A stretch of DNA of 64,000 nucleotides from Sinohyriopsis cumingii. Its lineage: Eukaryota; Mollusca; Bivalvia; Unionida; Unionidae. Below, piece after piece: positions 41,902-59,903 of the stretch (its first letter is position 1; every line of letters starts with the position of its first letter). The notes under the pieces are model-generated. The model was not told the DNA's origin. It was given only the letters and a program-made list of their open reading frames with translations, and made no database searches. The stretch lies in contig CM068839.1 of NCBI GenBank assembly GCA_028554795.2, positions 86,077,540 through 86,141,539 of the forward strand, given 5' to 3'. Both the position numbers and the translations under genes were made by a program.

Positions 41902-41929
41902 GTTTTTTTGTTTGCTATGGCATTCTTTT

Positions 41930-42304: not shown

Positions 42305-42352
42305 CTTCGTAGGAGGATGAGTCGACAATGGATGGTTAGACTGGGAACAAAC

Positions 42353-42394: not shown

Positions 42395-42631
42395 CCACAC
42401 GGTTTTTCGAGCCGCAACGTTCATGAGAGGGATAGTAAGAAATGAAAGAGCATCAATCCAACATTCTTATAGCTAAACAAAAGACAAAAGCATTTTTTCA
42501 AAACACAACATTTTTTATTCAAAAATCACTTAACACTAAACAACAACTCTAACATTTTATAACAATAATCCAACACTATAACATCAAATAATTTTTTTTA
42601 AATCACTAACATTTTCTTCTCAATAGACAAT

Positions 42632-43192: not shown

Positions 43193-43337
43193 GTTTTTTT
43201 TCTTCTTCACAGGTAATAATAAGTCGTCAATTCGATCCTGACTTTTTGCTTGAAAATGTCTGACGAATAAACGGTTATTTGTTCTGTTTCCTCACTCTGA
43301 TTCAGGAGAGCTTCGATACGATTGATCTCTTGAGTGG

Positions 43338-43709: not shown

Positions 43710-43714
43710 GGCTT

Positions 43715-45028: not shown

Positions 45029-45050
45029 TTTTTTTTTGTTGTCTCTTTTC

Positions 45051-45467: not shown

Positions 45468-45474
45468 GACTTAC

Positions 45475-46404: not shown

Positions 46405-46826
46405 AATTCCAGAGTTCTGTGGCTGTCCGAAGGGTTAGTGGACGTCAGAGGCGTGTCCCCGCCCAAAATGGGGTTCTGGTTGTGATTGAAGTGGTGACTG
46501 GCACTGGCACTGGACACAAGGTTCCCGGGGTTCCCGTTCGAGGTGAATTTCAGGGAGGGATTAGGAAGCAGGTAACCGATGCAACTGCTCAATAAAATGG
46601 TCCACAATTGTTTGTCTCCTTGTTGCAAACTGAAATTGGCAATGGCTGCCCCGATGACACAATATACCACGAAGATTTGGCAGAAAAAGACGATTTGCGT
46701 TTTAGGCACACGTTCTCCACACCACACCCACAAGGGTTGTTTTTGTAAATCTTGCACAGAAGAACTAGGTGAAGGAGGAGTGGTCGACGTAGCTGCGTCT
46801 GCTGTGTGAAAGGGCATGATGGTCAC
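46401..46826 (-). CDS. P2 small two-helix membrane protein
   Basis: 141 residues. Ser/Pro-rich N-terminus, then PLWVWCGERVPKTQIVFF leading into two hydrophobic segments (about residues 50-70 and 80-95) around a short loop, then a polar tail. VPKT, LLSSCIGYLLPNP is a recurring pattern in animal Polintons. It overlaps both neighbours by 4 bp. A virion membrane or assembly role is inferred. Confidence 0.6.
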   Translation of the reverse strand: MTIMPFHTADAATSTTPPSPSSSVQDLQKQPLWVWCGERVPKTQIVFFCQIFVVYCVIGAAIANFSLQQGDKQLWTILLSSCIGYLLPNPSLKFTSNGNPGNLVSSASASHHFNHNQNPILGGDTPLTSTNPSDSHRTLEL

Positions 46827-47932
46827 TTCTTTTTATAGTCGATGACTTGCGAAGCGTCGATCCAAGAATCGAAACTGGGTGGATATCCTTTCCAACGTAC
46901 TTTGACTTCTTTGACACGTCGTTTGCCCACTTTACGGGTTCTGCGTTCGAGAATGCTTTCGATGTCGTACACGTCGTCTTCTTTTTTGGTGACACGTTGT
47001 AACTCGGGCAAATAGAACGTTCCTTTGAGCACTTCTCCGTTCATGTCTTCCAATTTATAGACGGCAGGATGACGGCCATGCACTCGTCCAGTGACGCGAA
47101 ACAATTCGGTCGTCCAGTTAGGTAAGTAACCTTTGTCGAAAGTGCGTTTGGTTTTGCCAATGCGCACCCAATCTCCTGCGGCCAACTCTCCACTTTTCTT
47201 GGGGACAGCCCTCGTCGGGGACGTACCAAACAGGCGCTCAAACACCAGCACTTCGTTGTCGGGAGTCACGTCTTGCGGGGCACGTCCGATGCTTCGATGG
47301 TAAGATTGGTTGTACGCTTGCACCAGGTGCGGTAAGATGTCGATGTACTTCAGAGTGTGGTGATTCTTAAAATATTTCCACATGCGTTCTTTCAAAGTGC
47401 GTTGAAAACGTTCCACGATGCTGGCTTTGGTTTCGGGATTCTCGGTGGTAAAAAAATGAATGTCACGTTTCTTTAATTCTTTTTGGAAAGCTTGGTTCAG
47501 AAATTCGGTGCCTTTGTCCGTTTGCCATCGAAGAGGGTGACGACCGCTTTGTTTCAACACCCGTTGCAGGGCTCGCACTAACTCGCTGCTCGATTTGGAA
47601 GTCAAGGGCACGACCCAGGCAAATTTGGAGAAGACGTCGATGACACAAAACAAATATTTGTAGCCACGATTGTAGCTGGCCAAATGAGAGACGTCGGCTA
47701 AATCGGCTTGCCATTGATGATCGATGCCTTCCACTCGGGTGCGACTTCTGGCAAACTTGCGTCGAATGGGTTTGTGTAAAGTGTAGGTAGCTTGTTCTTG
47801 TAACCATCGTTGCACTTGAGGTAAACGGAGATTTTTCAGTCGCGTTTTGGCAGCACGATACAATTTTTGAACTCCTGCGTAACCTGCAGGATGGGAGGGA
47901 TCGTAGTAAATGCTGGCTAAGACTTTTTCCAT
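46823..47932 (-). CDS. P2 retroviral-type integrase with C-terminal chromodomain
   Basis: 369 residues from MEKVLASIYYDPSHP (ATG at 47932; a longer start would overlap the next gene). Helical N-terminal domain, then an rve core with the DDE triad: WQADLADVSHL, RWQTDKGTEF, and the E in ASIVERFQRTLK. An SH3-like part with GDWVRIGK follows, then a chromodomain VYDIESILERR ... VKVRWKGYPPSFDSWI. Integrates the element with 6 bp duplications. The chromodomain may steer insertion to methylated-histone chromatin. Confidence 0.85.
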   Translation of the reverse strand: MEKVLASIYYDPSHPAGYAGVQKLYRAAKTRLKNLRLPQVQRWLQEQATYTLHKPIRRKFARSRTRVEGIDHQWQADLADVSHLASYNRGYKYLFCVIDVFSKFAWVVPLTSKSSSELVRALQRVLKQSGRHPLRWQTDKGTEFLNQAFQKELKKRDIHFFTTENPETKASIVERFQRTLKERMWKYFKNHHTLKYIDILPHLVQAYNQSYHRSIGRAPQDVTPDNEVLVFERLFGTSPTRAVPKKSGELAAGDWVRIGKTKRTFDKGYLPNWTTELFRVTGRVHGRHPAVYKLEDMNGEVLKGTFYLPELQRVTKKEDDVYDIESILERRTRKVGKRRVKEVKVRWKGYPPSFDSWIDASQVIDYKKK

Positions 47933-47954
47933 TTTTTTTGTGTTGGTTGGTGTG

Positions 47955-48584
47955 TTAATAAGACACCCACTCTTGGAGGATGCTACTCTTTTTCTCTTGG
48001 GGTACTTTCTTGGATTGTAATGCTTTGCGTGTGCGGCCAGCAATAGGTGTCGAAGAGGAGAAGGATGTCTGAGCGGGGGATATCGGTTCTTGTTTCACTT
48101 CTGTCTTCACTTCTGTCTTCACTTTCTTTTTCTCTTGTGAGGAAGAAGGGGTGGCCATCATCTTTTTAATCCATCCAATTCTGGAGGTAGGTGGTGTTGT
48201 TAACTTGCGTACTTTTTCTGGTGGAGTTTGAAACCCTTCTTCTTCTTCTTCTTTTCCTTTTTCTGTCTTGGTCACTGGTGATGGTGCTGGTGATGGTGCT
48301 GGACTTTTCATCAAGGTCTTAAAATCTTTCAAAGTGGGTAGAGCTGTTTCGTCTAAAGCTTTCTGGTGAAAGAGTTGTAGTCGTTGCAAGAGTTGACCGT
48401 ACTTTTGCGATTTTTCTGTTTCGGACAAATCTTGGCGATCCATCAAGGACTGCAATTCGTGTTGTAACTGGGACATTTCGCTCAAATTGGGATTGGGAGG
48501 TAAATGCGGGGTGCGTTGTTCTTGCCACCGATGGTATTCCATCCATCGTTTGTAAGGCACTAAAGCTAGTTTTCGTCCTTCCAT
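47955..48584 (-). CDS. P2 hypothetical protein, conserved LVPYKRW start
   Basis: 209 residues. Starts MEGRKLALVPYKRWMEYHRW. Gln/Leu-rich helical middle (SQLQHELQSLMDRQDL), then a Pro/Ser/Lys-rich basic C-terminal half. Many Polintons carry a protein with this kind of start next to the integrase. Function unknown. TATA-like AAGATAAAAA upstream at 48631-48640. Confidence 0.5.
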   Translation of the reverse strand: MEGRKLALVPYKRWMEYHRWQEQRTPHLPPNPNLSEMSQLQHELQSLMDRQDLSETEKSQKYGQLLQRLQLFHQKALDETALPTLKDFKTLMKSPAPSPAPSPVTKTEKGKEEEEEGFQTPPEKVRKLTTPPTSRIGWIKKMMATPSSSQEKKKVKTEVKTEVKQEPISPAQTSFSSSTPIAGRTRKALQSKKVPQEKKSSILQEWVSY

Positions 48585-48633
48585 GGGGTTGTCAGGGGTC
48601 GATTCTGAGATCTTGGGACTTCCGAAGGCCTTT

Positions 48634-49020
48634 TTATCTTGCTCCCACCAGTCCTCCCAACATGGTTCCCAAGACTCCTTTCAGTATGGGGCCTAACAAG
48701 AGAGGTAAAATGCCTCCACGTTGGACCAACATCTTCTTTTCTTGACGAATGGGAATTTTCTTTCGAACCATTTGGCGAAGAACGTGACGATGTTTGCTTA
48801 AGCATTGTTTCTGGTGTTTGGACAAAGGGATCGTGCCTTTCAAAACGTTCAAACAACATTCGCACACGGTATCGATGACCTCTTTGGAGGCCGTTTGAAT
48901 GAGTTTTTTTCGTAGGGGTGGAGAAGCTTTGGACAGGACAGATAACAGGTCCCCATGTTTGGCTAAACGTGGTGGCAGTCCTTTCCTTTTCTTTCCTTGG
49001 GGTTTTCTGGAGGGTGACAT
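48634..49020 (-). CDS. P2 small basic protein with hydrophobic Gly-rich tail
   Basis: Start at MSPSRKPQGKKRKGLPPRL (ATG at 49020). 128 residues. Basic N-terminus, CECCLNVLKGTIPLSKHQKQ block, LVQRGGILPLLLGPILKGVL tail. The basic head plus GG-LPLLL amphipathic tail is typical of small adenovirus-like structural proteins in Polintons. A membrane-lytic or core role is inferred. TATA-like box at 49075-49085. Confidence 0.55.
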   Translation of the reverse strand: MSPSRKPQGKKRKGLPPRLAKHGDLLSVLSKASPPLRKKLIQTASKEVIDTVCECCLNVLKGTIPLSKHQKQCLSKHRHVLRQMVRKKIPIRQEKKMLVQRGGILPLLLGPILKGVLGTMLGGLVGAR

Positions 49021-49078
49021 CTTTGAGTCTTTAGGAGCACCTAAAAACACTGATACTCTACTCGGTCACAGGCCTTTT

Positions 49079-50041
49079 TTATACTGGAACGCGTCGCCAC
49101 TGATTGTCTTTACGGCGTATCAGTTTGAGGACAGGCATGACACGTCGTGCAGGGGTACGTAACGGACTAAATCGAGCCAGTTCTTGCTTGGACAAATCCA
49201 GTAAACTTTGTAACATGCCCGATCTTTCATGGACTTTGATTTTGGGAGAAGGTACTTTGTGAGCAGCAGCCACTACCGCTAAATGGGAAGGTCCTGCCAC
49301 TGGGGAAGTTCTTTTGGGGGTCATCAACGGAGAAGTTCTTGGTGTAATCAACGTCTCCAAGTACTCTTCAGTTCCTGGTGACATCAACGGAGAAGTGGAC
49401 AAACGTGAGGCTGCCGGAGACGCAGTCACCGCTGTGGCAGGTCGTGGTTTGCGAGTGTAAGGTTGCGTCCTGGCCGAAGTGCCTCTCTTGCGACTAGTTT
49501 TCTTCTGTGGACTTTTCTTTTTCTGAGGACTTTTTCTCTGTTTCTTTTTCTGGGGGCTTCTTTTCTTTTTCCGGGGTGGTGGTGTCTGGTAAGAGGAGGG
49601 CCCTGCCACTGGAGAAGTAATTCTTCTTGGGGACCTGGTCTTTTTCTTTTTCTTCTTGGGGCTTCGTTGAACTTTTGTCTTGGGGATAACTTTGGGGGCA
49701 TTAGGATCCCATCTTAAGAGTGAGCGAATGATGACCCCTCCTAGAGTACCGCTCCCTCCAGGTTTCAAAATGATTTGTTTTTTGGTTTGAGTGTCGATGC
49801 GGGGATCGGCCAGTTGGACCAAAGCGACTTTGTTTCGATCGAAAAAGCGTTGGGTTTGATGAGGAATCTGAATGATTCCTTGGAGTATTTGACGTGCCGT
49901 CACCGTGAACCATCGTAAGACTTCTTTGAGACTAGCTTCTAAGACACGAGCTCGTGTTTGTGGATCTTTTTCTCGACTGATGCCATACAAGGCACGAATC
50001 AATTTGACGGGAAGATGCGACTGAAGGGACGTCATGTTCAC
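49079..50041 (-). CDS. P2 large basic core-like protein
   Basis: 320 residues. The first 120 are folded-looking (LIRALYGISREKDPQTRARV). The rest is Lys/Arg/Ser/Pro-rich with many SPKKKKKK, SPQKKK and SPVAGPS repeats, ending in a short Leu-rich block. It resembles a protamine-like or core DNA-packaging protein. The SP-K motifs could be cyclin-dependent kinase sites; this is inference. TATA-like CTATAAAAA at 50074-50082. Confidence 0.5.
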   Translation of the reverse strand: MNMTSLQSHLPVKLIRALYGISREKDPQTRARVLEASLKEVLRWFTVTARQILQGIIQIPHQTQRFFDRNKVALVQLADPRIDTQTKKQIILKPGGSGTLGGVIIRSLLRWDPNAPKVIPKTKVQRSPKKKKKKTRSPRRITSPVAGPSSYQTPPPRKKKRSPQKKKQRKSPQKKKSPQKKTSRKRGTSARTQPYTRKPRPATAVTASPAASRLSTSPLMSPGTEEYLETLITPRTSPLMTPKRTSPVAGPSHLAVVAAAHKVPSPKIKVHERSGMLQSLLDLSKQELARFSPLRTPARRVMPVLKLIRRKDNQWRRVPV

Positions 50042-50076
50042 ACTGTGTGAGACAGACGAAAAAGGGTCCGAGGTTT

Positions 50077-50835
50077 TTATAGATTTTTTTCATGGGAGGA
50101 GTGAAATGAAGTCGAGGACGGAGACGTGTACAGGACAGGCCCTCCGTCTTGGCACCAGTGGTGAAACAAGTGGGTACGAAATCGCAAATCCTCGGGGGTC
50201 GTAGGTTTCAAATCGACGAGTAAATAGGCGTGTGGCGTTTGAGTGGCATCGTCGTACGCCTGAGTCAGCCAAGGCGTTCCTAACTGTTTGGCTAAGACTT
50301 GCACTTGCGATTTATCTCGAGGGCTTTTAAACAAGACCACGTAATGCGCATTGAGACTGATGGTGCGATGGGCTTTACTTTGTTGAAACAAATTTTGGGT
50401 GATGTAAACGACACTGGCATTACGGTGATGCCCTTTGCGCGTGAACCACAATTTAATTTCTTCTTCGTCTTCTCCTAACATGTCGTCGAAAATGACCAAA
50501 TGGGTTAGACGGGAGTCAGAGACGATGCCGTCGTCTTCTTTAGGAATGCCTTCCACAAACACGATGGAATCGCCTTGACTTTCTCGCAAGAGGCTGTACG
50601 CCGATTGCCACTCTTTGTAACACCACACGATCCGTTGAGGGGGCCGATCGATCAAATGATGTTTATGTTCGATCAAACGTTTGACGAATTCGGTTTTGCC
50701 TGAACCGCTAGGTCCAGCAATGAGCATGTTAAAGGGATGGCGAAGATACAAAGCCTCCCAACTGGCACGATCTAAGTGTTCGTCGATGACTTTGACAGTA
50801 GAGGAAGAGGGAGCAGAGACAGCAGAGGTAGCCAT
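50077..50835 (-). CDS. P2 genome-packaging ATPase (HerA/FtsK superfamily)
   Basis: 252 residues from MATSAVSAPSSS (ATG at 50835; TATA at 50883-50892 is about 55 bp upstream). Walker A AGPSGSGKT near residue 40, Walker B LVIFDDMLGE near 115, and a sensor-like VYITQNLFQQ. Pumps genomic DNA into the capsid in related viruses. Together with capsid, penton and protease it completes the virion gene set. Confidence 0.85.
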   Translation of the reverse strand: MATSAVSAPSSSTVKVIDEHLDRASWEALYLRHPFNMLIAGPSGSGKTEFVKRLIEHKHHLIDRPPQRIVWCYKEWQSAYSLLRESQGDSIVFVEGIPKEDDGIVSDSRLTHLVIFDDMLGEDEEEIKLWFTRKGHHRNASVVYITQNLFQQSKAHRTISLNAHYVVLFKSPRDKSQVQVLAKQLGTPWLTQAYDDATQTPHAYLLVDLKPTTPEDLRFRTHLFHHWCQDGGPVLYTSPSSTSFHSSHEKNL

Positions 50836-50910
50836 GGTGTGAGAAATGTCACTTGTGACACGAAAAAACAAACAAGACAAGAGTTTATATACTTTTTTTT
50901 TCAGAACACG

Positions 50911-50916
50911 TTTATT
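50911..50916 (-). terminator. Poly(A) signal AATAAA
   Basis: Minus-strand ATTCAATAAACG shortly after the stop of the frame ending at 50924. It marks an ordinary polyadenylation site at the boundary between the host-interaction block and the ATPase. Confidence 0.45.
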
Positions 50917-50923
50917 GAATGTT

Positions 50924-51253
50924 TCAAATATGAACACGAAAGACAAAAATGCATACAACCCAAATAGTGATGTACAGGAATAAAAAACACATCAAAACAA
51001 TCAAAGTGGAATATAAACAAGTGTCTGTACAACATGTTTTGGGTAACGAAGATGTCCTAGGGACAGTGTGTAATGTTCTTACAGTCTCTACATGAGGTAT
51101 TGTCACACAAGTGTCCTCCCGGACTGACCTTTCAGGCCTGTCCATGACAGTCCTGTCCTGAAGCGAGTGGTTGTTGTCGGTGACGGGTTCTTCTGGCACC
51201 GTCACTAACACAGGTTGAAAAGTAACTTTTTTCCTTGAACAACTCTTGTGCAT
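50924..51253 (-). CDS. P2 possible tail-anchored membrane protein
   Basis: From MHKSCSRKKVTFQP (ATG at 51253), 109 residues, ending in one strong hydrophobic helix (STLIVLMCFLFLYITIWVVC). It overlaps the next gene (51132-51473) in another frame over 120 bp, so either one may be spurious. AATAAA follows. Function unknown. Confidence 0.35.
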   Translation of the reverse strand: MHKSCSRKKVTFQPVLVTVPEEPVTDNNHSLQDRTVMDRPERSVREDTCVTIPHVETVRTLHTVPRTSSLPKTCCTDTCLYSTLIVLMCFLFLYITIWVVCIFVFRVHI

Positions 51254-51473
51254 ACTGGGCCACTTCTTGGGTCCAAGCTTCAAAACCCCCTTTTTTCCAA
51301 TCACGAACATCTGTCCAATGGGGATGTAAGTCACAAGCTACACACACATCGTCATACACGTCTTGGGTAGCTAAAAGTTGACGAATCTTTTTTTCCTGTT
51401 GAGGTCGAGAAGTATCCAGATGAAAACGCAAGGCTTTGAGCAAAAGGAGTTTTTCGTGACCATTTAAGGCCAT
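51132..51473 (-). CDS. P2 hypothetical protein
   Basis: 113 residues from MALNGHEKLLLLKALRFHLD. It contains CVACDLHPHW and a helical middle (EAWTQEVAQYAQELF). No family recognised. Its start overlaps the end of the next gene by 10 bp. Confidence 0.4.
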   Translation of the reverse strand: MALNGHEKLLLLKALRFHLDTSRPQQEKKIRQLLATQDVYDDVCVACDLHPHWTDVRDWKKGGFEAWTQEVAQYAQELFKEKSYFSTCVSDGARRTRHRQQPLASGQDCHGQA

Positions 51474-51688
51474 GGAGGTGGTAAGTACAGATCGTAAAGA
51501 GTCCACAAAGAATCGGCTGGTAAACGAAATCCCAGAAAACAAGTCACTAAGACACACACCACTTGTCGTCCCAAATTGAATGGATACAGTTCTTGTAATA
51601 ATCGATGGTAATGATCCACGGTTTGAATATGGTCATTGAGTTCCTTCCAGGGAATCTGTTGAATGATATGTGACATAATCCGTGGCAT
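51464..51688 (-). CDS. P2 hypothetical small protein
   Basis: 74 residues (MPRIMSHIIQQIPWKELNDH), a possible degenerate relative of the neighbouring family, with a hydrophobic middle (VVCVLVTCFLGF). TATA-like box at 51697-51705 is very close to the start. Function unknown. Confidence 0.35.
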   Translation of the reverse strand: MPRIMSHIIQQIPWKELNDHIQTVDHYHRLLQELYPFNLGRQVVCVLVTCFLGFRLPADSLWTLYDLYLPPPWP

Positions 51689-52157
51689 GGCAACTTGATT
51701 TTATAGTGTCTTTGTTTCGGAAGCAATAAAGGTAATTTCTAACCAAACACGTTCGTTCTCCAGTAGGGAATTTAAATGTTACATACTGTAACTGAAACGC
51801 CAGAGTTTGTCTAGATGTTTCGTCTTTTTCTAAGCAGATTCCATGTAACAAATGTTGGTAATCCTTTAACTCGTCTTCCTCAATACGTTGCAGTAAGTGA
51901 ATCTCCAAGTAACCAAAATTACGTACGTCTAGCCCATCATCATTCATATACTGAAAGTATTCAACAAGGTCTGACCAGTGAAAAAATTTCTGACGAATCA
52001 GTCCTCTTATACCATTCAGGTACCAGTGGTTAAAGATCCGGTGACGTAACGGATGCAATTGTTCTTTACGTTTCACTTGTATTTTCACCAACTCTCGATA
52101 AATCCTTTCTCTCAACTCCTCAGGCAAGCCCAAAATGTTCTCTTGTAAAGTATCCAT
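51633..52157 (-). CDS. P2 LPxEL-family paralogue 1 (F-box-like start)
   Basis: Start at MDTLQENILGLPEELRERIY (ATG at 52157), 174 residues. The LPxELxxxIYxEL start resembles an F-box first helix. It shares this with the next two genes, which makes a tandem family of three. The remainder is Tyr/His/Leu-rich and not recognised. If the F-box-like reading is right, it would recruit host SCF ubiquitin ligase; this is inference. Confidence 0.4.
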   Translation of the reverse strand: MDTLQENILGLPEELRERIYRELVKIQVKRKEQLHPLRHRIFNHWYLNGIRGLIRQKFFHWSDLVEYFQYMNDDGLDVRNFGYLEIHLLQRIEEDELKDYQHLLHGICLEKDETSRQTLAFQLQYVTFKFPTGERTCLVRNYLYCFRNKDTIKSSCHATDYVTYHSTDSLEGTQ

Positions 52158-52392
52158 AAGTATATACACTGTTTTTGGAATCGCTGGGTGGTGTCCAATA
52201 GCCTCGTTTAACTTTGTGCCTAATGTAATATCCACTCATAATCAGTCTTCTTGTACTTTGGAACAGAGCATAATTTAAAAACGGTTCAATCACTTCGAGT
52301 TTGCGTTTCACTTGTATTTTGATCAGTTCTCGGTAAATGCGTTCTCTCAACTCCACAGGCAAAGCACGAATGTTCTCTAGCAAAGTATCCAT
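52120..52392 (-). CDS. P2 LPxEL-family paralogue 2 (short)
   Basis: 90 residues, MDTLLENIRALPVELRERIY then RELIKIQVKRK, nearly the same as paralogue 1 for 30 residues and then different. It overlaps the start of paralogue 1. Probably a partial duplicate. Confidence 0.4.
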   Translation of the reverse strand: MDTLLENIRALPVELRERIYRELIKIQVKRKLEVIEPFLNYALFQSTRRLIMSGYYIRHKVKRGYWTPPSDSKNSVYTYGYFTREHFGLA

Positions 52393-52413
52393 GAACAGCT
52401 CAATCCGTACAAT

Positions 52414-52803
52414 TCACAATCTTCTCCTAGAGCAAAAGTAATCCACATAGTAAGTAATTTCTGACCACTGCCATTCAGGGTAACGTCCAAGAATCTCACT
52501 GAACTCTTTTGATGTAAAAGGTCTAGAGTGATATAATAGGACGAATGCACACTTGATCCAAAGAAATCTAACACACTGGTTGACTTTTTTCACTTTCCTC
52601 TTGTGAATTTCACGGCACAAAAGTTCTACAGTGACCCATTGAGAGTTCACTCTGGCAAGTCCCTGCCAAACTTCCTTGTAAATCTTCTCTTGCAGTTCTT
52701 TAGGTAATGATTCAATATCGTTTTTGAAATCAAGTTTAAATACTGGTCTCGGTGATGTCCAACATTTGACTCCTAGCCAATCTGGTTTCTTCGTCAACGA
52801 CAT
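52414..52803 (-). CDS. P2 LPxEL-family paralogue 3
   Basis: 129 residues. The IESLPKELQEKIYKEVWQGL block lies at about residues 30-50. It then shows CREIHKRKVKKVNQC and a C-terminal block with FSEILGRYPEWQWSEITYY, which parallels the WSDLVEYFQY block of paralogue 1. It is 11 bp downstream of the BIR gene. Confidence 0.4.
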   Translation of the reverse strand: MSLTKKPDWLGVKCWTSPRPVFKLDFKNDIESLPKELQEKIYKEVWQGLARVNSQWVTVELLCREIHKRKVKKVNQCVRFLWIKCAFVLLYHSRPFTSKEFSEILGRYPEWQWSEITYYVDYFCSRRRL

Positions 52804-52814
52804 GGTAAGTTACT

Positions 52815-53552
52815 TCAATGTCTCGGTCCCACTAAGGGTAAGTAATGACAATTCGGTGACCATCGAGCATGTTCTACGTAGGCTGAATCTTGCGGTTCCC
52901 AGTGGTGAAGTGACACACCGCAACTGAAGCACTTGACTTTATCTCCTTCGCCCAAGTAGAAAAATCCGGCTCTGGCTAATTCTTCGGGGGTCGGTCCTCC
53001 CAGATACTTAGGCCATTTTCCTTTGAACGATTGAAGACGATTTTCAAAGTCGCAGTATTCCGACAAACGCACAGGAAACAAATATTCGTTTTTCACAGGT
53101 TCGTTTCGATGAGGGTTGGGTGACAGGAACAGGAGTTTGCTCAGGGCTGGATGACATCCGTAGGGGGGTAGACGTGAAGGTGAACATTCCCCTTTAAACC
53201 CGGTAAAATGTCTAAGAGGACGAGCGGCATCGCTTTCGCATCCCTCAGGTTTGACACGCACAGCATCACTTTCCATGACAGGGGCAGTGAGAACAAAGTT
53301 CCCATGATGCTTTACGGCATCGCTCAGGTCACAACGTGCAGCATCGTACCCATCGCAAGGCTCACAATCGCACTCGTCTGCAAACTCCGTTACGCAATTA
53401 CAATGGTAACCACATGGACAATCGCAGTTTCCTTCCGGACATTTTCCGTCGCAATGCATGGGTCTTATCCATCCAATATTAGTCACACTAGAGGAAGATA
53501 CAACTTTTTTACAATCCCCAAACTGGAACGATGTCTCTTTCAAAGTATTCAT
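52815..53552 (-). CDS. P2 BIR-domain protein (IAP-like)
   Basis: 245 residues. The C-terminal BIR domain (about 160-240) shows FPVRLSEYCDFENRL, LARAGFFYLGEGDKVKCFSC and the zinc ligands in exact C-x2-C-x16-H-x6-C spacing, ending NCHYLPLV. The N-terminal part is a separate Cys cluster (CDGKCPEGNCDCPCGYHC). IAP proteins block caspases or act in ubiquitin signalling, so this is a candidate for suppressing host apoptosis, as baculoviral IAPs do. No RING is present. TATA-like box at 53609-53618 inside the PolB 3' end. Confidence 0.8.
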   Translation of the reverse strand: MNTLKETSFQFGDCKKVVSSSSVTNIGWIRPMHCDGKCPEGNCDCPCGYHCNCVTEFADECDCEPCDGYDAARCDLSDAVKHHGNFVLTAPVMESDAVRVKPEGCESDAARPLRHFTGFKGECSPSRLPPYGCHPALSKLLFLSPNPHRNEPVKNEYLFPVRLSEYCDFENRLQSFKGKWPKYLGGPTPEELARAGFFYLGEGDKVKCFSCGVSLHHWEPQDSAYVEHARWSPNCHYLPLVGPRH

Positions 53553-53584
53553 CTTGTTCGCTTGGTCTTGGTAGTCACAATGAA

Positions 53585-56500
53585 CTATCGATCTTGCCTA
53601 GGGTTCCTTTTTATATACAGACCAATACCGACGTGACCGTACGGTAAGGTGAAATGATTGGGAAGTCGAACTCGCTTCTGGTATACAATTTGATAGATTT
53701 TTTCCAAGGGTCGACTGACGATGTGGTGAGTGGGTAAACGTACAATCTTGTTCGGTTGATAGGTGGTCACTTTAAAGTTTCCATCCTCTCCCGATTGCAA
53801 GGCTTCTTTCAATACCCCAAAGTTGACCACTCGACTGGTACGATAATTCAGAGTCAGTCCTTTCACTTTGCACGTCGTGTGCACTTCTCCTTGTTTGTCC
53901 CGGTATTCGTAGCCGTAATTTTTGGGACCGCCACTGACGAAACTTAGAATCTTGTCGTCGGGATGCTCGTCTGTCCAGGCTCCTAAACGGTCTCCTTCGA
54001 TGTCAGGGTGATGTTGAATCGGGTGATGGATGTAAATGCAGCTGTCCGTGTCAAAGTACAGGACGCGTTCCCCTAAAAGTTCTAAAGCTTCGTACAATTT
54101 TAAGCGAGCATGGGCTGTCACGTAAGCCGCAATGATGACGTTTCCAAAAGGGTCGTCTTGTACAAAGTCCAGATCTTCTTCGTAATTGACCAAGATCAAA
54201 TTCTCTCGAACGACGTCCACGTGTTTCATGTATTTGGTTTTGTCGTGAATCATCTGGAAGTAGCGGGAAGGTTCTGTCAAATATTCCGTCTTGGGTAAAC
54301 ACGGTCGTTGTGCCATTTTACCCCACAAGCAATTTAACATCACTTTGGCAAACGATCGCCTGCCTTCGTTTTTCTCGATGTGGTCTAAAGTGATGCCTTC
54401 TTGTGCGTAGTATTTCTCTTTGAATTGTATTTGGTCTTCGGGAGTGTGACACCAGGAAGGATAGCCGCTGGCTTCTTGCTTCAGTTTCAAAAAGGCATCC
54501 ACGTAGTCGGCGAAAATGCCTTTCTGACTGGGGTCACCCTTGCTGTATTGTTGTGTCTTGGGAAAGTGGCAAATTTCGTACACTTCTAACAGTTGGTATC
54601 CCATGTCCAAAGCTTTGAACAATTCTACGCTGACCCAGGTTCCCGTCAAGGCCCGTTCTTCCTGGCTGTGCTGACAAGCTTGGTCTTGGTTGCACGTTTC
54701 GGCACAAGTACGGCACAAGGGAAACATCAGTTTGCCTTGACAATGGTGAGGTAAGACGGGATGGTATAGGTTCGTGGGAGGCAAAACTTTACACTTGATC
54801 AAGCCTTCGTACTGTCGAATATTTTTCAGGTCGATGTGTTCCGTCAGCAATTGTGGGTGCCCTACGGGAAAACGACAATATTTGCACACGTAGAGATACA
54901 GCGAACACACGTCCAAGTATTTGATTTCTTCTCCTTTCTCTTCGTCGGCTTGGTACAGCAAACAAGTGGCATTGGTCCTTCCTCCGTACAAACTATCCCT
55001 CGGGTTCAGCGGGTCCATGAACTGGTAACTTTCCACGGCACGTTTAAACTCGGGATCGGTTTTCATACGGTGATCGTACTCGTGTTCCCACATTTCCACC
55101 ACTTGGTATCCTTGCTGTTCTAACTTTAGGCGTCGCTGACAAGTGTCCTGGTACAAGTCTTCCATGGTTCGTTGCAAAAACTGATTTTTAGTGCCACGGT
55201 CAGGGTAACAGACGGGACATCCGTGAAATAAGCAACCGTTAAACTCGTACACGATCTTGGGGTTTTCTAAGTCCCAGCCATCGACCGAATACGTTCCGAT
55301 GGTCTTTTCGCCCCCTCCGTTGCGGGCATGCTGAATCCACTTGTCTTCCTTGTCGCACAAGTAATGTAACCAGCGTAAGGCTTTGACCGAGTATTGACGT
55401 TTGACAAAGTGGGTCGTTTGAGGGCTGATGACAGCCACGGTGTTTTCAGGCATGAATCGTTGTCGATACACTAAGGAACACGCTTTGGCAATGGTGCAAG
55501 CTTCTTTCAAAGGATCGACCCCTCCGTGTTCCATGAACAGTTCTCGAAATTTTCCACAGCAACGCCGTAAAATGTCCACGTCGGAACGACAATACTTTAG
55601 CATTTCTTCCTGAAAGTCGAAAGGGTCCGAAGCGTGAGCCTGGTACCAAGCGTAGAAAGCTTCTCGTTGTTCGGTACGCATGTTGTCGGGGTCGTAATAG
55701 TGAGCCTCGGGCAAATGGGGTAGAACGGCGTGTTGATTGGCTTCCGTATTGAAAAAGTGTGGAAAGTACCCTTTAACCATTTCTGTCATTCCAAACGTTT
55801 TAGGCATTCGACTCAAAGGCATGGCCAAATAGCTCATCGAATCTTTAAACTGTACTTGTCCCACTTGCATGAAAATGATTTTGGCTCCGTTCAAAGTCAC
55901 TTTAGGACGCTCGGTGCCTTGTTCCGTATAGTACCTCAAAAGAAACTGTCCATCGTATCCGGAGAAATTGTGAGCCATCACCGTGGCATGACGATGACAA
56001 TCTCCGTAACGTTCGATGTCCTCTTGGCTCCACGTCTTGTCGACGGGGTCTAAGACCCATTGGGCAAAATCGGCTAACGTGTTTGGCCCCCGAAAGATTT
56101 TTTCACGCCCTCCGGGAATCTTGCTGCAGTGAGGGCAATGACTGAAGATAGGTTCTTGAATGCACTTCTCGCACGCTCGATGAGCCACGCAGAAATTAGG
56201 AATGTGAATGCCGGTCTCTTGCATGCATTCGAAATCGAAAAAGATGAAATTGCCTTTCTTCTTGTGACCGTCCTCTTTCTCTGGTGGGGGTTGGTATTTT
56301 TGCACGTAACATTGGTGTTCCAAGTCCACGATGTGGTGACAAATGTGACATTTTTTCTTTCCTCGACATACGTGTGCCTTGGCAGCATTGGTACATATGA
56401 CTTGTTCACACGTAGGGCACAATCTCAGGAGTTGACAAGCACATTTCTTCTGTGAACCTTGCGTTTTCAGATGTTGTTGGTAACAGGTAGGGCTGACAAA

Positions 56501-57652
56501 CGTGCGCAGACAAGTGGAACAAGGCACTGGTTCTTCGCTCAGACAGGGTGAAGAGGCCAAACATCCTGAGCATTTCAATCCACAATGCTTGTGTTGCTCT
56601 CGATTGTTATAACCATGGTCACATTTCTCACAGTAATAACGGTATCCCAGGAATCCAGTGATAGTGGTAATCGTATCGAAATGGTCATCGTGATAATAGA
56701 CATGAATGTATTTTCCATCCTTAAAGTCTTGCCCTCGAAACAATAGAGGTCCGCGCACTTCTTGAGGGTGCACTTTCAAGGTGTATCGTGGAGCTAGGAC
56801 ATCTTGCAATTTTTGCATCTCAGGAATGCCACAGGGTGTGTCTTTGGACAGTCCGGCTTGTTGTAACAGGAGTTCTGCTTCATTTCGTTGTTTGGCTCGG
56901 TCGGAACGTTGAATAGTGTCCCAGGTTCTTTTCCATTCTACCGTGTCGTTCTTGTTGGCATAGGTTCGTCCCACCACGATGGCACGGGCTAAGCACATCT
57001 GGTCATGAGGGTTGTCAATTCGGACGAGACTCTTTTTGGTGTTGCGAAGGTCGTCCACCAATAACATCTTTTTGTGTCCTGTCCCTTGAGGAGGAGAGAC
57101 GTGGGTCATGTCCAGTGTGGCTTTACCATCGGTGATGTCAAACTGATCATTAGATTGTTGTACGTGTTGAATCTTGTCCATGACTTTGGAAGCAGTCAAT
57201 TCTGCAGGGGTGCTAAACTCGATCCAAACAGGGGATTTCAAACCGTCGTGTTGTATGGAAAGTCTCAAGCGATCGTCTTCTTTGGGTTGACATTGTCGCT
57301 TGAGTGAGGTGAGCAAAGAATCCCACACCTCGGTGATGAACACTTCTGCTTTCTCTAACGGTACTTCAGCCTTGAAATCTTTAAACTTCACCGTGTATTT
57401 GTAAGCCGTGGTTCTAAATTTTCTAGAGGAGCGCTTTTCCGTCTCTCGAATGGAATAGTACTTTTCAGGGTTGACAAAGGGTGGTGGACTTGGTTTAGAG
57501 GGTTTGGATTCTGGTTCACTCATGTCCTCTTCAAAATCACTGGCATGAATTTGTGCCAAGATTTCAGCCCTGGTACGAGGCGATAGATCACGTTTCTGCC
57601 TCTTACTTCTTTCTTCTTCTTCTTTCTTCTCGAATGAATGGGATCGTTTCAT
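53585..57652 (-). CDS. P2 protein-primed family B DNA polymerase
   Basis: 1355 residues. The N-terminal 350 have a CLARAIVV block. A Cys/His-rich zinc region (about 345-455) contains CEKCDHGYNNREQHKHC. The 3'-5' exonuclease has FFDFEC (Exo I), NFSGYDGQF (Exo II) and YCRSDVDIL (Exo III). The polymerase has motif A LDVCSLYLYV, motif B KVMLNCLWGK and motif C YFDTDSC. All catalytic acids are present. Copies the element with protein priming from the terminal repeats. Lost entirely from P1. Confidence 0.9.
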   Translation of the reverse strand: MKRSHSFEKKEEEERSKRQKRDLSPRTRAEILAQIHASDFEEDMSEPESKPSKPSPPPFVNPEKYYSIRETEKRSSRKFRTTAYKYTVKFKDFKAEVPLEKAEVFITEVWDSLLTSLKRQCQPKEDDRLRLSIQHDGLKSPVWIEFSTPAELTASKVMDKIQHVQQSNDQFDITDGKATLDMTHVSPPQGTGHKKMLLVDDLRNTKKSLVRIDNPHDQMCLARAIVVGRTYANKNDTVEWKRTWDTIQRSDRAKQRNEAELLLQQAGLSKDTPCGIPEMQKLQDVLAPRYTLKVHPQEVRGPLLFRGQDFKDGKYIHVYYHDDHFDTITTITGFLGYRYYCEKCDHGYNNREQHKHCGLKCSGCLASSPCLSEEPVPCSTCLRTFVSPTCYQQHLKTQGSQKKCACQLLRLCPTCEQVICTNAAKAHVCRGKKKCHICHHIVDLEHQCYVQKYQPPPEKEDGHKKKGNFIFFDFECMQETGIHIPNFCVAHRACEKCIQEPIFSHCPHCSKIPGGREKIFRGPNTLADFAQWVLDPVDKTWSQEDIERYGDCHRHATVMAHNFSGYDGQFLLRYYTEQGTERPKVTLNGAKIIFMQVGQVQFKDSMSYLAMPLSRMPKTFGMTEMVKGYFPHFFNTEANQHAVLPHLPEAHYYDPDNMRTEQREAFYAWYQAHASDPFDFQEEMLKYCRSDVDILRRCCGKFRELFMEHGGVDPLKEACTIAKACSLVYRQRFMPENTVAVISPQTTHFVKRQYSVKALRWLHYLCDKEDKWIQHARNGGGEKTIGTYSVDGWDLENPKIVYEFNGCLFHGCPVCYPDRGTKNQFLQRTMEDLYQDTCQRRLKLEQQGYQVVEMWEHEYDHRMKTDPEFKRAVESYQFMDPLNPRDSLYGGRTNATCLLYQADEEKGEEIKYLDVCSLYLYVCKYCRFPVGHPQLLTEHIDLKNIRQYEGLIKCKVLPPTNLYHPVLPHHCQGKLMFPLCRTCAETCNQDQACQHSQEERALTGTWVSVELFKALDMGYQLLEVYEICHFPKTQQYSKGDPSQKGIFADYVDAFLKLKQEASGYPSWCHTPEDQIQFKEKYYAQEGITLDHIEKNEGRRSFAKVMLNCLWGKMAQRPCLPKTEYLTEPSRYFQMIHDKTKYMKHVDVVRENLILVNYEEDLDFVQDDPFGNVIIAAYVTAHARLKLYEALELLGERVLYFDTDSCIYIHHPIQHHPDIEGDRLGAWTDEHPDDKILSFVSGGPKNYGYEYRDKQGEVHTTCKVKGLTLNYRTSRVVNFGVLKEALQSGEDGNFKVTTYQPNKIVRLPTHHIVSRPLEKIYQIVYQKRVRLPNHFTLPYGHVGIGLYIKRNPRQDR

Positions 57653-57660
57653 CTTGAAAG

Positions 57661-57786
57661 CAAAAAGTCAAATGACTCAAGTTCAAACACCATAAGCTAC
57701 TTTATAGTCATAGCAGACCAGCGTATATAAAAGGGTGTGTGTCTTGTCCTTTCACTATTCATTTCACTCTCAAGCCGAGCACAACG
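57661..57786. promoter_or_regulatory. Divergent promoter, PolB and zinc-knuckle gene
   Basis: TATATAAAAGGG at 57724 faces the plus-strand gene (ATG 57787). Minus-strand CTATAAAGTAG at about 57698-57708 faces PolB (ATG 57652). The pairing suggests that polymerase and knuckle protein are expressed together. Confidence 0.55.
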
Positions 57787-58248
57787 ATGGAAGAGACTAA
57801 CCAGATGGAACGTTTCGTCAGAGCTTTGCGAGGGATCATTAGAAAATTCTCTTCAGACCAGCCTACGGACTACTCTCCTTCCTTTCGAGATAAAAGTCAA
57901 GATACTTGCTATATCTGTCAGAAGAAAGGGCATTGGTCTTCAGAGTGTCCAGACCGTGAAAAAAGAACAAAAACAGGGACTAAAAAAGACAAAAGTCAAG
58001 ATACCTGTTATTATTGTCAAGAAAAAGGACATTGGTCTCCAGATTGCCCAAAAAAGAAACAAGAGGAGTCAGAAGAAAAGAAGGATTCTTCAGAAGAAGA
58101 GAGGGATTCTTTAGAGGAAGAAGAGGAAGAAAAAAGACAATTCTATTTACAAGAGGCAAAGAAACAGGAGAAACAGGAGAAGAAGAAAAGAAGAAGGGAA
58201 GAAAATGAGGAAAAGACGGTGAAGAAATTTAAAAAACAGAGAGAGTAA
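57787..58248 (+). CDS. P2 zinc-knuckle (CCHC) protein
   Basis: 153 residues from MEETNQMERFVRALRG (ATG 57787). Two CCHC knuckles, CYICQKKGHWSSEC and CYYCQEKGHWSPDC, are followed by a long Glu/Lys-rich helix. It probably binds single-stranded nucleic acid, like CNBP or retroviral nucleocapsid. Divergent from PolB. An AATAAA near 58330 suggests ordinary polyadenylation, unlike the neighbouring gene D. In P1 only its last codons remain, at the deletion join. Confidence 0.65.
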   Translation: MEETNQMERFVRALRGIIRKFSSDQPTDYSPSFRDKSQDTCYICQKKGHWSSECPDREKRTKTGTKKDKSQDTCYYCQEKGHWSPDCPKKKQEESEEKKDSSEEERDSLEEEEEEKRQFYLQEAKKQEKQEKKKRRREENEEKTVKKFKKQRE

Positions 58249-58498
58249 ACAAGGAGAAAGAAGAAGTCAATGAACTTTATATTAAAGTGTTGTGAATTGT
58301 CAATTGGATTGTAAAAAAATGGAGAAAAGAATAAATGAATGATATAAGGTAAGTGTCTTTGAGTTGTGATTTTAAAATAAGAACGTACACTCACGCACTC
58401 ATACACAGACACGTACTATAAGGGTAAAATGGGTGGGGTTTATATTTTTTTGAGTTATTGGCAAATTGAAATTGTATTTCTTTTCGAGAAATGTGGGT

Positions 58499-58514
58499 GG
58501 CCCTGAAAAGGGCC
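58499..58514 (-). terminator. Histone-type 3' stem-loop with ACCCA (P2 gene D)
   Basis: Minus strand: AAAGGCCCTTTTCAGGGCC (exact consensus), ACCCA, then GAAAAGAAAT 13 nt after the stem. It is 28 bp past the gene D stop. This is the closest match to a canonical histone 3' end in the window, together with 11791. Confidence 0.8.
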
Positions 58515-58541
58515 TTTTTTCTTCATGGTGAAAGGGTGAGT

Positions 58542-59117
58542 TTAAGCAATCAACTTTAACTGCCTTATGCCTTTGCCACGGCCAAGGCCTACTTCTGGAC
58601 TGCGTAATGTTGATAATGATTGGGTTGAAATCACTAAGGGTGGTACGGTAGGCTTAGTCACAGGGTTGACGTGTTTAGCTCGGGAAGGTCGTATTCTCTT
58701 CGGTCGTGATAAAGAAGTCTGATACATTTGTTTCAGACTTCTTAACTCCGCTAAAATGTCCAACAGTACCGTGACCGTTTGATTTTCACCCTCTTGTTTC
58801 TTTGCTGCTACTTCTTCTTGCTGTTGCTGCTGTTGTTTTTTTCTTACCTCTTCTTCTTGTTGCTGTTGCTGTAGGAGAAAAGCCTGTTCCGCTTCCTTTT
58901 GTCGTTGTATAAATTTCTCCAATTCTTCTTTTTGTCTCTGTCTAAAATTTTCCACTTGCGGTAATGAAGAAGGTAACGAAGGTTCCGGAACAAATTCTTG
59001 CGAGGAGAGAAAATCCACAAAATCCCAATTCACCTCTTCTGAAAGTAAGTCCGAGTTCCCTTGGGCAGTCTCCCCTGCTGGTGCACCCCAATGGATCGTT
59101 TTCTGAGTTTCCGTCAT
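58542..59117 (-). CDS. P2 accessory gene D: polyQ protein
   Basis: 191 residues (MTETQKTIHWGAPAGETAQG). Acidic N-terminus with WDFVDFLSSQEFVPEP, then a coiled coil with Gln runs (QQQQQEEEVRKKQQQQQQEE), then a Leu-rich segment (TVLLDILAELRSL) and a basic tail (RPKRIRPSRAKH). An acidic head plus Gln-rich and basic parts would suit a transcriptional regulator; this is inference. Driven by the CRE promoter at 59165. Confidence 0.55.
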   Translation of the reverse strand: MTETQKTIHWGAPAGETAQGNSDLLSEEVNWDFVDFLSSQEFVPEPSLPSSLPQVENFRQRQKEELEKFIQRQKEAEQAFLLQQQQQEEEVRKKQQQQQQEEVAAKKQEGENQTVTVLLDILAELRSLKQMYQTSLSRPKRIRPSRAKHVNPVTKPTVPPLVISTQSLSTLRSPEVGLGRGKGIRQLKLIA

Positions 59118-59164
59118 GTTGAATCACTGTCGCATAGATTGACTGCACACAAGCGCTAGCGAAT

Positions 59165-59292
59165 CTATATAGACTACGTGACGTCACAGACTGCTCTCTT
59201 CGGATTGGATGCGGGCTGACTGAATTCTGTAACGCGTGTTCGGATTGGTGAATGAACTCAATCCGTTTCAATCCTTCCTGTCCCTATAAATA
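59165..59292. promoter_or_regulatory. Bidirectional promoter with CRE, CCAAT and two TATA boxes (P2)
   Basis: CTATATAG at 59165 facing gene D, perfect CRE TGACGTCA at 59179-59186, ATTGG boxes at 59204 and 59244, CTATAAATA at 59284-59292 facing gene E. Order and spacing match P1 12451-12577. Confidence 0.7.
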
Positions 59293-59336
59293 AGCACCGT
59301 TCACTGCATTGATTCACCTATTCTCGGAGCCTCAAC

Positions 59337-59567
59337 ATGTGGACCGACGTTGAATCTTCAACCCTTGTGTCTTCCATGATGTTCAGGACGGACATGCTCA
59401 TGTATGTCCGATCCAAGTGGACCGTTGTCCACAGGACCAACAGCAGCCTGTGGATAAGAAGAGTCTATATAGAGAGACAAGGTTGCCTCAAGAGAACTCT
59501 GATGTATGGCCCTGCTGTAAGACGAAGTTTGAGGAAAAGAAGATGTCGCAAATGCCCTTTATGTTAA
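59337..59567 (+). CDS. P2 right-end gene E: small basic protein
   Basis: 76 residues (MWTDVESSTLVSSMMFRTDM), basic, ending RRSLRKRRCRKCPLC with a CxxxxC pair. The P1 copy keeps many of the same residues in this frame despite stops, which supports it as the coding frame. Transcribed towards the right terminus from the CRE promoter, with the stem-loop inside the terminal repeat. Function unknown. Confidence 0.5.
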   Translation: MWTDVESSTLVSSMMFRTDMLMYVRSKWTVVHRTNSSLWIRRVYIERQGCLKRTLMYGPAVRRSLRKRRCRKCPLC

Positions 59568-59577
59568 GGGCATATTA

Positions 59578-59903
59578 ACATAAACCAAAGGCCCTTTTCC
59601 GGGCCAGCCATATTTCTCGAAAAGAGATAGTCTTTGAATTGCCTACCCTTTTTTTTAAAAAAAATTTAAAAAAAAAAATCCCATGTTAAATTCCCCTTGT
59701 CCGTAGAGTGACCCACGATTTATAGCCATGTTAAATTCCCCTTGTCCGTAAAGTGACCCACGATTTTTTGCCATGTTAATTCCCCTTGTCCGTAATCTAA
59801 CCCACGATTTTTCGCCATGTTAAATTTCCATTGTCCGTAATCTGACCCAAGGGTGTTTTTAATGCTAATTCCCATTGTCCGTAAACTACCCCTATTCACT
59901 ACT
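59578..59903 (-). repeat. P2 right terminal inverted repeat
   Basis: Reverse complement of 39929-40254, nearly identical. It contains the gene E stem-loop, the A/T run and the iterated units, and ends CACTACT at 59903, next to CAAAGA. Confidence 0.85.
59590..59605 (+). terminator. Histone-type 3' stem-loop, one loop-closing mismatch (P2 gene E, right TIR)
   Basis: CAAAGGCCCTTTTCCGGGCC, then AGCCA, then GAAAAGAGAT 13 nt after the stem. One base differs from the left-end copy (C for A at the top of the stem), which weakens the closing pair. Confidence 0.65.

What the first reader, a model, noticed from the sequence alone, without database searches (positions are those of the whole stretch)
58494..58540. 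Histone-mRNA-type 3' ends on Polinton accessory genes
Seven hairpins (6331, 11791, 12881, 40228, 41017, 41886, 58499) and an eighth with one mismatch (59590) lie just past the terminal accessory genes of P1 and P2, on the coding strand. Four are exact to the histone stem-loop consensus GGYYCTTTTNAGRRCC; three differ only in the closing pair. Four carry ACCCA directly after the stem, as in animal histone genes, and all eight have GAAAAGARAT exactly 13 nt after it, placed like the U7 downstream element. Seen directly: sequences, spacing, position. Established: such signals give SLBP/U7-processed, non-polyadenylated, S-phase mRNAs. Inference: the element couples its early genes to host DNA replication. 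I do not know of this being described for Polintons, but could not search.
Basis: partly seen in the sequence, partly recalled or inferred. Interest (0 to 1): 0.95.

Follow-up and report, generated by a model that had tools for sequence, protein, structure and literature searches.

The report
Virus-like element copies histone-gene control signals
In a mollusc genome, a virus-like mobile DNA element ends five of its genes with the RNA signal that its host's histone genes use, and starts three of them with a histone promoter motif, which suggests that it times these genes to the moment the cell copies its DNA.

Summary
All eight hairpins are present. Four pass Rfam's cut-off for the histone 3' stem-loop, three score 30.8-31.0 and one 23.8. 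A covariance model built only from this host's own H1, H2A, H2B, H3 and H4 3' ends finds all eight (38.4-55.6 bits); 13 control loci reach 17.4. Host histone genes carry GAAAAG 13-14 nt after the stem; 62 of 67 Polinton hairpins carry [GA]AAAAGA at exactly 13 nt. Of 75 RF00032 matches scored genome-wide, 52 were examined; all 52 adjoin this Polinton family and none a histone gene. New here: the left accessory genes share a 23-nt promoter box with host H2B (identical) and H1 (1 mismatch); a second H2B array carries it too. A 20-nt core occurs 35,456 times in the genome, its reversed control 0 times. So the element copies both ends of replication-dependent histone genes. Best reading: five accessory genes form an S-phase regulon with SLBP/U7-processed, poly(A)-less mRNAs. 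Not shown: cleavage, transcript ends, host U7 (not found), SLBP (search did not complete).

The parts
39929..59903 (.). P2: complete-length Polinton/Maverick, 19,975 bp, terminal inverted repeats (258 nt 99%, continuing inward to include a hairpin), 6-bp target-site duplication CAAAGA at 39923-39928 and 59904-59909
   Evidence: genes
58499..58514 (-). histone-type stem-loop after accessory gene 58542-59117
   Evidence: exact; RF00032 41.2 bits; R1 53.1 bits
58476..58485 (-). purine element GAAAAGAAAT, 13 nt after the stem (histone downstream element position)
   Evidence: same place as in host histone genes
41886..41901 (-). histone-type stem-loop after accessory gene 41930-42304; purine element 41863-41872
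   Evidence: RF00032 31.0; R1 55.6
41017..41032 (-). histone-type stem-loop after accessory gene 41062-41424; purine element 40994-41003
   Evidence: RF00032 31.0; R1 55.6
40228..40243 (-). histone-type stem-loop of leftmost gene, inside the TIR; purine element 40205-40214
   Evidence: RF00032 35.6; R1 48.8
59590..59605 (+). histone-type stem-loop (one mismatch) of rightmost gene, inside the TIR; purine element 59619-59628
   Evidence: RF00032 23.8, below cut-off; R1 38.4
11791..11806 (-). P1 counterpart of 58499; purine element 11768-11777
   Evidence: RF00032 39.2; R1 53.4
12881..12896 (+). P1 counterpart of 59590; purine element 12910-12919
   Evidence: RF00032 35.6; R1 50.4
6331..6346 (-). 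P1 counterpart of 41886; purine element 6308-6317
   Evidence: RF00032 30.8; R1 52.1
40708..40730 (-). promoter box of leftmost gene, 23 of 23 letters identical to host H2B promoter box
40777..40799 (-). second promoter box of leftmost gene (1 mismatch to the box pattern)
41490..41512 (-). promoter box of accessory gene 41062-41424
42370..42392 (-). promoter box of accessory gene 41930-42304
6821..6843 (-). promoter box of the P1 counterpart of gene 41930-42304
40203..40646 (-). leftmost accessory gene, K/E-rich; the stop that precedes the hairpin in 13 of 13 relatives is absent in this copy
41062..41424 (-). accessory gene, K/E-rich, no Pfam family over cut-off
41930..42304 (-). accessory gene, Q/E-rich, no Pfam family over cut-off
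58542..59117 (-). accessory gene, Q/E-rich 191 aa, 20 homologues, all on contigs of at most 2.3 kb
59337..59567 (+). rightmost accessory gene, 76 aa, Cys at C-terminus, no Pfam match; divergent promoter with 58542-59117 holding CCAAT boxes, TGACGTCA and TATAAATA
42632..57652 (-). block of protease, capsid, integrase, ATPase, IAP-like and PolB genes, without hairpins; AATAAA 113 nt after the last stop (protease) and another 8 nt after ORF 50924-51310

Best explanation
A Polinton family that has multiplied in a mollusc genome places five accessory genes under the host's replication-dependent histone programme. Three have a host histone promoter box (the one of H2B and H1) in front. All five end in the host's histone 3' signal: stem-loop, ACCCA-like flank, 13-nt spacer, U7-type purine element. 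Their pre-mRNAs should be recognised by SLBP and U7 snRNP, cut just after the stem and left without poly(A), so that they accumulate in S phase and are destroyed when replication ends. The capsid, polymerase and integrase block lacks these hairpins. Shown: sequences, positions, identity with host histone signals, conservation across copies. Inferred: binding by SLBP/U7 and the promoter factor, cleavage, S-phase timing.
For: Eight hairpins score with RF00032 (four over the cut-off) and with R1, a model of this host's own five histone 3' ends (all eight; 13 control loci at most 17.4 bits). The best Polinton copies under R1 (55.6 window, 55.1 elsewhere) exceed host H1 (54.1) and fall below the other four host genes (57.6-65.4), all five being what R1 was built from. 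Host spacing and purine core match: 13 nt in H3, H4 and H2B, 14 in H2A and H1; Polinton 13 in 62 of 67. In 30 loci fetched by their best hairpin, other accessory genes not used for that selection also have one: one search lists 31 of 32 rows; leaving out one double count (L016) and one circular row (L040, matched only through the hairpin itself) 29 of 30; the one miss, L030, has a 36.5-bit match. Stem-loop, 5-nt flank and purine element are better conserved than the spacer between them and the 30 nt before: 0.97/0.94/0.93 against 0.75/0.76 (18 rows) and 0.94/0.97/0.95 against 0.78/0.77 (13 rows) (all copies with an R1 match). The closing pair changes on both sides, G-C to A-U, in 11 of 55 distinct rows. 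Promoter box: 5 in the window, 0 in 100 shuffles; identical in host H2B, 1 mismatch in H1. Following box hits led to a second H2B array that carries box and hairpin.
Against: No transcript data. Host U7 was not found and the SLBP search did not complete. Gene 41930-42304 also has AATAAA 109 nt after its stop, beyond the hairpin, so polyadenylation is possible as a back-up. The two right-end genes lack the box. Four Polinton loci from other hosts' metagenome bins, three of them contigs of 8-12 kb, show no RF00032 match, so the trait is not general. About a tenth of 16-nt windows around these genes' ends are at least as conserved as the stem-loop (30 and 32 of 334). In one search further pair types do not exceed shuffles (4 against 4.0), and the closing-pair change is probably few events.
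Confidence: 0.78

Rival explanations
1. Only the 3' signal matters: the element uses the host histone processing machinery as a compact way to end short genes, or to make mRNAs that need no poly(A), without any coupling to S phase.
For: Two of five genes have the hairpin but not the box. In the copies of four genes the hairpin begins 16-39 nt after the ORF end or its projected end, which is compact.
Against: Three left genes also carry the H2B/H1 promoter box, so both ends match histone genes. The genome-wide box count is 35,456 against 0 for its reverse.
Confidence: 0.12
2. Relic: a piece of host histone regulatory DNA was once captured and is carried along without present function.
For: The 60 nt after the stem keep some wider similarity to host H2A and H2B, much less to H1, which fits capture from a histone gene. 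About a tenth of nearby 16-nt windows are as conserved as the stem.
Against: Stem, flank and purine element stay conserved while the spacer between them and the 5' flank drift. Spacing is 13 in 62 of 67. In P2 the hairpins follow five different genes in the sense orientation.
Confidence: 0.04
3. DNA-level or element-own signal: a cruciform or replication/packaging site in the terminal repeats, or a virus-own hairpin terminator of the mimivirus/virophage sort (recalled).
For: Two of five P2 hairpins lie in the inner terminal repeats.
Against: Three P2 hairpins are internal. All eight are read on the coding strand, and flank and purine element at fixed distance match host histone genes, which a palindrome or terminator would not need.
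Confidence: 0.03
4. Reverse direction: the host's histone genes took their promoter box from the Polinton.
For: The box core is far commoner in the genome (35,456) than the histone matches scored (150, a capped list); most of the 100 listed places are grouped as in the Polinton left end.
Against: The box sits in two unlike H2B arrays, in H1 and, in weaker form, upstream of H2A. Stem-loop and purine element are ancestral to animal histone genes (established). TTTTCAATC..GTCCG resembles the mammalian H4 element bound by HiNF-P (recalled, not tested).
Confidence: 0.03

Closest known systems
Metazoan replication-dependent histone genes (Rfam RF00032 3' stem-loop, U7 downstream element)
   Same: Stem-loop, flank, 13-nt spacer and purine core as in this host's own histone genes; promoter box as in its H2B and H1
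   Different: The genes are non-histone accessory genes of a mobile element; none of the five products has a Pfam match over cut-off
Polintons/Mavericks and adintoviruses
   Same: PolB, rve integrase with chromodomain, Pox_A32-type ATPase, weak adenovirus-type protease match, TIRs, 6-bp target duplication
   Different: Histone-type promoters and 3' ends on accessory genes; not seen in titles and abstract starts of the papers listed (0 papers), nor in the passages seen of PMC11071296
Viral coupling to S phase (adenovirus E1A/E2F, LXCXE proteins, parvoviruses; recalled)
   Same: A DNA virus ties its early programme to host DNA replication
   Different: Here by copying cis-signals of histone genes rather than by a protein that drives the cycle
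Hairpin-defined 3' ends in giant viruses and virophages (recalled)
   Same: Hairpin just after the stop codon
   Different: Those are virus-own signals leading to polyadenylation; here the sequence is the host histone signal with its downstream element

Membership tests
RF00032 histone 3' stem-loop | six-pair stem, UUUN loop, consensus GGYYCUUUUNAGRRCC | tested here: met
   4 of 8 over the gathering score, 3 at 30.8-31.0, 1 at 23.8; 98.5% of cells paired
RF00032 histone 3' stem-loop | ACCCA-like 3' flank (cleavage site) | tested here: met
   ACCCA in 56 of 67 hairpins; 4 of 8 in the window
Histone downstream element (U7 target) | purine-rich element at fixed distance | tested here: met
   13 nt in 62 of 67, not found in 5; same core in host histones
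Histone downstream element (U7 target) | base pairing with host U7 snRNA 5' end | tested here: inconclusive
   no convincing U7 gene found
Replication-dependent histone-type mRNA | poly(A)-minus 3' end cut after the stem by SLBP/U7/CPSF73 | not testable with these tools
   no RNA data
Replication-dependent histone-type mRNA | host has SLBP | not tested
   search failed (not completed); implied by five host histone genes with the stem-loop
Host histone promoter element | box present in host histone promoters | tested here: met
   H2B identical, H1 1 mismatch, H2A region 4 mismatches; none within 6 mismatches before H3 or H4; second H2B array
HiNF-P (HINFP) site | binding by HINFP | not testable with these tools
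   resemblance recalled only; motif not found in papers
Polinton/Maverick | PolB plus rve integrase | tested here: met
   PF03175 1.8e-39, PF00665 2.9e-14
Polinton/Maverick | TIRs and 6-bp target duplication | tested here: met
Polinton/Maverick | packaging ATPase | tested here: met
   Pox_A32 1.4e-7, over cut-off
Polinton/Maverick | adenovirus-type cysteine protease | tested here: inconclusive
   Peptidase_C5 0.0082, below cut-off
Polinton/Maverick | double jelly-roll major capsid protein | tested here: inconclusive
   ORF 43715-45028 has 1021 homologues, some named F54H12.2-like, but no Pfam match; capsid label recalled

The most novel reading that the evidence does not exclude
A virus-like element has captured whole histone-gene control cassettes, promoter and 3' end, for an entire early regulon, so that its accessory mRNAs are made, processed and destroyed as if they were histone mRNAs. 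With a promoter-box count of 35,456, its copies would far outnumber the host's histone genes and may load the SLBP, U7 and histone-promoter machinery of the host.
Probability: 0.5. Interest if true: 0.95.

Novelty: new variant of a known kind. Interest (0 to 1): 0.87.

Why it matters
Histone-type 3' ends are regarded as the mark of replication-dependent histone genes in animals. A mobile, virus-like element that uses them on several unrelated genes, with a histone promoter box in front of three, would be a natural non-histone client of SLBP and U7, would tie Polinton gene expression to host DNA replication by cis-signals alone, and would give an outside view of which parts of the histone signal selection keeps. 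It also supplies a testable way in which Polintons, whose life cycle in animals is still largely unseen, might choose dividing cells.

Tried and rejected
Viral collections: no PolB relative or capsid relative in IMG/VR; a hairpin-plus-purine pattern gave six IMG/VR contigs with no RF00032 match, four of them with tmRNA matches, so chance or bacterial terminators. One scan of GTDB genome contigs gave four Polinton loci from other hosts, none with RF00032; three are contigs of 8.4-11.8 kb, so partial.

U7: Rfam RF00066 gave three matches below its cut-off (29.3 bits at best). The pattern had 193 hits against 36 for its reversed control; most of the 100 listed share one sequence that the window's integrase gene also holds; 6 were fetched and folded. 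A second pattern had 65 hits against 41 for its control; 6 were fetched. None shows a clear Sm site plus 3' hairpin. U7 stays unfound.

Considered and rejected: that the leftmost gene's frame through the hairpin speaks against processing there. In 13 of 13 relatives a stop precedes the hairpin. My query for the rightmost gene was out of frame; it was redone. A first conservation count used only hairpins of one listing and so left out L020, L021, L028, L040 and L014, L027, L030, L035; one search repeats it with all copies that have an R1 match and is the one cited. Host species: only 'mollusc, probably bivalve' (H1 relatives).

Never answered: searches for COI (PF00115), SLBP (PF15247) and the genome-wide count of the full hairpin-plus-purine pattern.

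Full report
OBSERVATION. The consensus search finds the eight hairpins as listed and GAAAAGARAT behind each. Rfam RF00032 scores them 41.2, 39.2, 35.6, 35.6 (over the gathering score of 34), 31.0, 31.0, 30.8 and 23.8 bits. They lie on the coding strand after five genes of P2 (41.9k, 41.0k, 40.2k, 58.5k on minus; 59.6k on plus) and three counterparts in the decayed copy P1.

THE ELEMENT. P2 runs from 39929 to 59903 with terminal inverted repeats and the 6-bp target duplication CAAAGA. It encodes PolB (PF03175, 1.8e-39), an rve integrase with chromodomain, a Pox_A32-type ATPase, a protein with an IAP (BIR) domain, a zinc-knuckle protein and a protein with a weak, below-cut-off adenovirus-protease match. 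The ORF at 43715-45028 has 1021 relatives, some named F54H12.2-like in oysters and Mercenaria; that these are capsid proteins is recalled. Of 24 ORFs examined, a hairpin lies downstream of four, and a fifth (the leftmost) overlaps its own; the large minus-strand block from PolB to protease has none. AATAAA stands 113 nt after the protease stop, 8 nt after ORF 50924-51310, 82 nt after the zinc-knuckle gene, and 109 nt after gene 41930-42304, beyond its hairpin. Another Polinton-like element in the window with a double-jelly-roll capsid gene at 18476-19654 has no hairpin: the window search with the host-trained model lists nothing above 12.3 bits between 13,000 and 39,900.

THE HOST'S OWN HISTONE GENES. 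The window lies in a 2.9-Gb assembly. Histone genes form tandem units of about 8.3 kb. One unit (L071) holds H3, H4, H2B, H2A and H1, and each has the stem-loop followed after 13 nt (H3, H4, H2B) or 14 nt (H2A, H1) by GAAAAG. Their RF00032 scores are 35.0-39.4; the Polinton copies reach 45.6. A covariance model built from these five host sequences alone finds all eight window hairpins at 38.4-55.6 bits, while 13 control loci give at most 17.4 bits. Over 33 loci it gives 76 matches; the best Polinton copy there (55.1) outscores host H1 (54.1) and stays below the other four host genes (57.6-65.4), which are its own training sequences. By the host's own yardstick the Polinton 3' ends look like histone 3' ends.

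COPIES. RF00032 over the whole genome scored 75 of 589,472 candidates, all over the cut-off, so the list is a sample. I examined 52 of the 75: 30 fetched with 3-kb loci and 22 more. All 52 adjoin sequence of this Polinton family, none a histone gene; for three (L084, L089, L090) the link is terminal-repeat DNA beyond the hairpin. Because loci were chosen by one hairpin, I counted the other accessory genes in them: one search lists 31 of 32 rows with a hairpin close to the ORF end. One row is a double count (L016) and one is circular (L040, matched only through the hairpin itself); without them 29 of 30 (13/13, 11/12, 1/1, 4/4). The miss, L030, has a 36.5-bit match. In the window plus 30 loci, 67 hairpins: ACCCA in 56, purine element at exactly 13 nt in 62, none found in 5. 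With all copies that have an R1 match, pairwise identity for gene 58542-59117 (18 rows) is 0.97 in the stem-loop, 0.94 in the next 5 nt, 0.75 in the spacer, 0.93 in the purine element, 0.76 in the 30 nt before and 0.74 in the 37 nt after; for gene 41062-41424 (13 rows) 0.94, 0.97, 0.78, 0.95, 0.77 and 0.88. About a tenth of 16-nt windows in these stretches are as conserved as the stem (30 and 32 of 334), among them coding sequence. The closing pair changes from G-C to A-U on both sides in 11 of 55 distinct rows; further pair types do not exceed shuffles, and the change is probably few events.

A SECOND SHARED SIGNAL. Upstream of the left accessory genes lies GATGTTTTCC(A/T)TCACGTCCGCGC: five times in the window (one with a mismatch), none in 100 shuffles. 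The copy at 40708 is identical over 23 nt to a box in the host H2B promoter; host H1 has it with 1 mismatch and the region upstream of H2A, in reverse, with 4; none lies within 6 mismatches elsewhere in the unit. A 19-nt core is present in 13 of the 30 Polinton loci. One search lists 20 exact boxes; 10 stand 52-72 nt before the start codon of a left gene, others are the second, upstream box. A 20-nt core is found 35,456 times in the genome, its reversed control 0 times; the 100 listed places come mostly in groups spaced as in the Polinton left end. One run of seven places spaced about 1,851 nt proved, when 4 kb of it were read, to be a second H2B array with both box and histone stem-loop. The box therefore marks host histone promoters, and the Polinton shares it. 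Its likeness to the mammalian H4 element bound by HiNF-P is recalled; a paper search for the motif found nothing. That HiNF-P recruits NPAT and Pol II to H4 promoters, and that SLBP and U7 act at the stem-loop, I take from passages of PMC5706932. The two right-end genes have no box; their shared divergent promoter has CCAAT boxes, TGACGTCA and TATAAATA.

MECHANISM. Most likely the five accessory genes are switched on with histone genes in S phase, their transcripts are cut after ACCCA with SLBP and U7, carry no poly(A) and vanish when replication stops. Shown: the signals, their equality with host signals, their upkeep in many copies. Inferred: every step of processing and timing. What the accessory proteins do is unknown; four are K/E- or Q/E-rich, and none of the five matches a Pfam family over its cut-off.

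LIMITS. Host U7 was not found in spite of two patterns and the Rfam model, SLBP was not tested, no RNA data were at hand, and the spread in other hosts is unknown: 0 of 4 Polinton loci from other hosts' metagenome bins have the stem-loop, three of them partial. The host is a mollusc, probably a bivalve, by its H1.

LITERATURE. 'histone stem-loop' with 'polinton': 0 papers. Other searches (1 of 1 listed; 25: 6 of 6; 26: 19 of 20; 63: 20 of 45; 65: 8 of 8; 66: 2 of 2; 94: 15 of 42; 96: none; 124: 30 of 181) list nothing on histone-type 3' ends of viruses or mobile elements, judged by titles and abstract starts, plus passages of PMC11071296 and PMC5706932. No paper was read whole. The library lacks many subscription papers, so absence here is weak evidence.

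VERDICT. A real and, to my knowledge, undescribed feature: known signals of a known gene class, used by a known kind of element that was not known to use them, at both ends of its genes.

Noticed in passing
window 253-303 (-): Ninth, weaker histone-like hairpin right behind the stop of another ORF (307-600, -) that is not part of P1 or P2; no purine element (R1 28.6 bits, RF00032 22.9).
   Followed up: partly
window 40203-40646 (-): The window's copy of the leftmost gene lacks the stop that stands before the hairpin in 13 of 13 relatives, so its frame runs through the hairpin; copies with the stop exist.
   Followed up: yes
window 13700-34900 (+): Another Polinton-like element or elements: double-jelly-roll capsid (PF21738, 18476-19654), weak below-cut-off C5 protease match (20138-20596), two ATPase pieces (13722-14141, 34353-34820; the second below cut-off); no histone-type hairpins.
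   Followed up: partly
L105 (G000:C1:5073300-5077300): Second H2B array, unit about 1,851 nt, with the promoter box, the stem-loop and TAAAAGAAT 13 nt after it.
   Followed up: yes
L106 (G000:C1:3846700-3848300), box at about 818 on the minus strand: A single H1-type promoter box without a histone-type hairpin in the 1.6 kb read; gene unknown.
   Followed up: no
window 59118-59336: Divergent promoter of the two right-end accessory genes with CCAAT boxes, a perfect TGACGTCA and TATAAATA, but no histone box.
   Followed up: partly
G000 genome-wide: 35,456 copies of the promoter-box core suggest of the order of ten thousand Polinton left ends in 2.9 Gb, a very large expansion (inference from 3-4 boxes per left end; many may be fragments).
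   Followed up: partly
P0241-P0260: The 20 relatives of accessory protein 58542-59117 are all on short contigs (about 0.9-2.3 kb); whether any are transcripts could not be checked.
   Followed up: no
window 52815-53552 (-): IAP-like gene with a BIR domain (PF00653, 1.3e-23) carried by P2.
   Followed up: no
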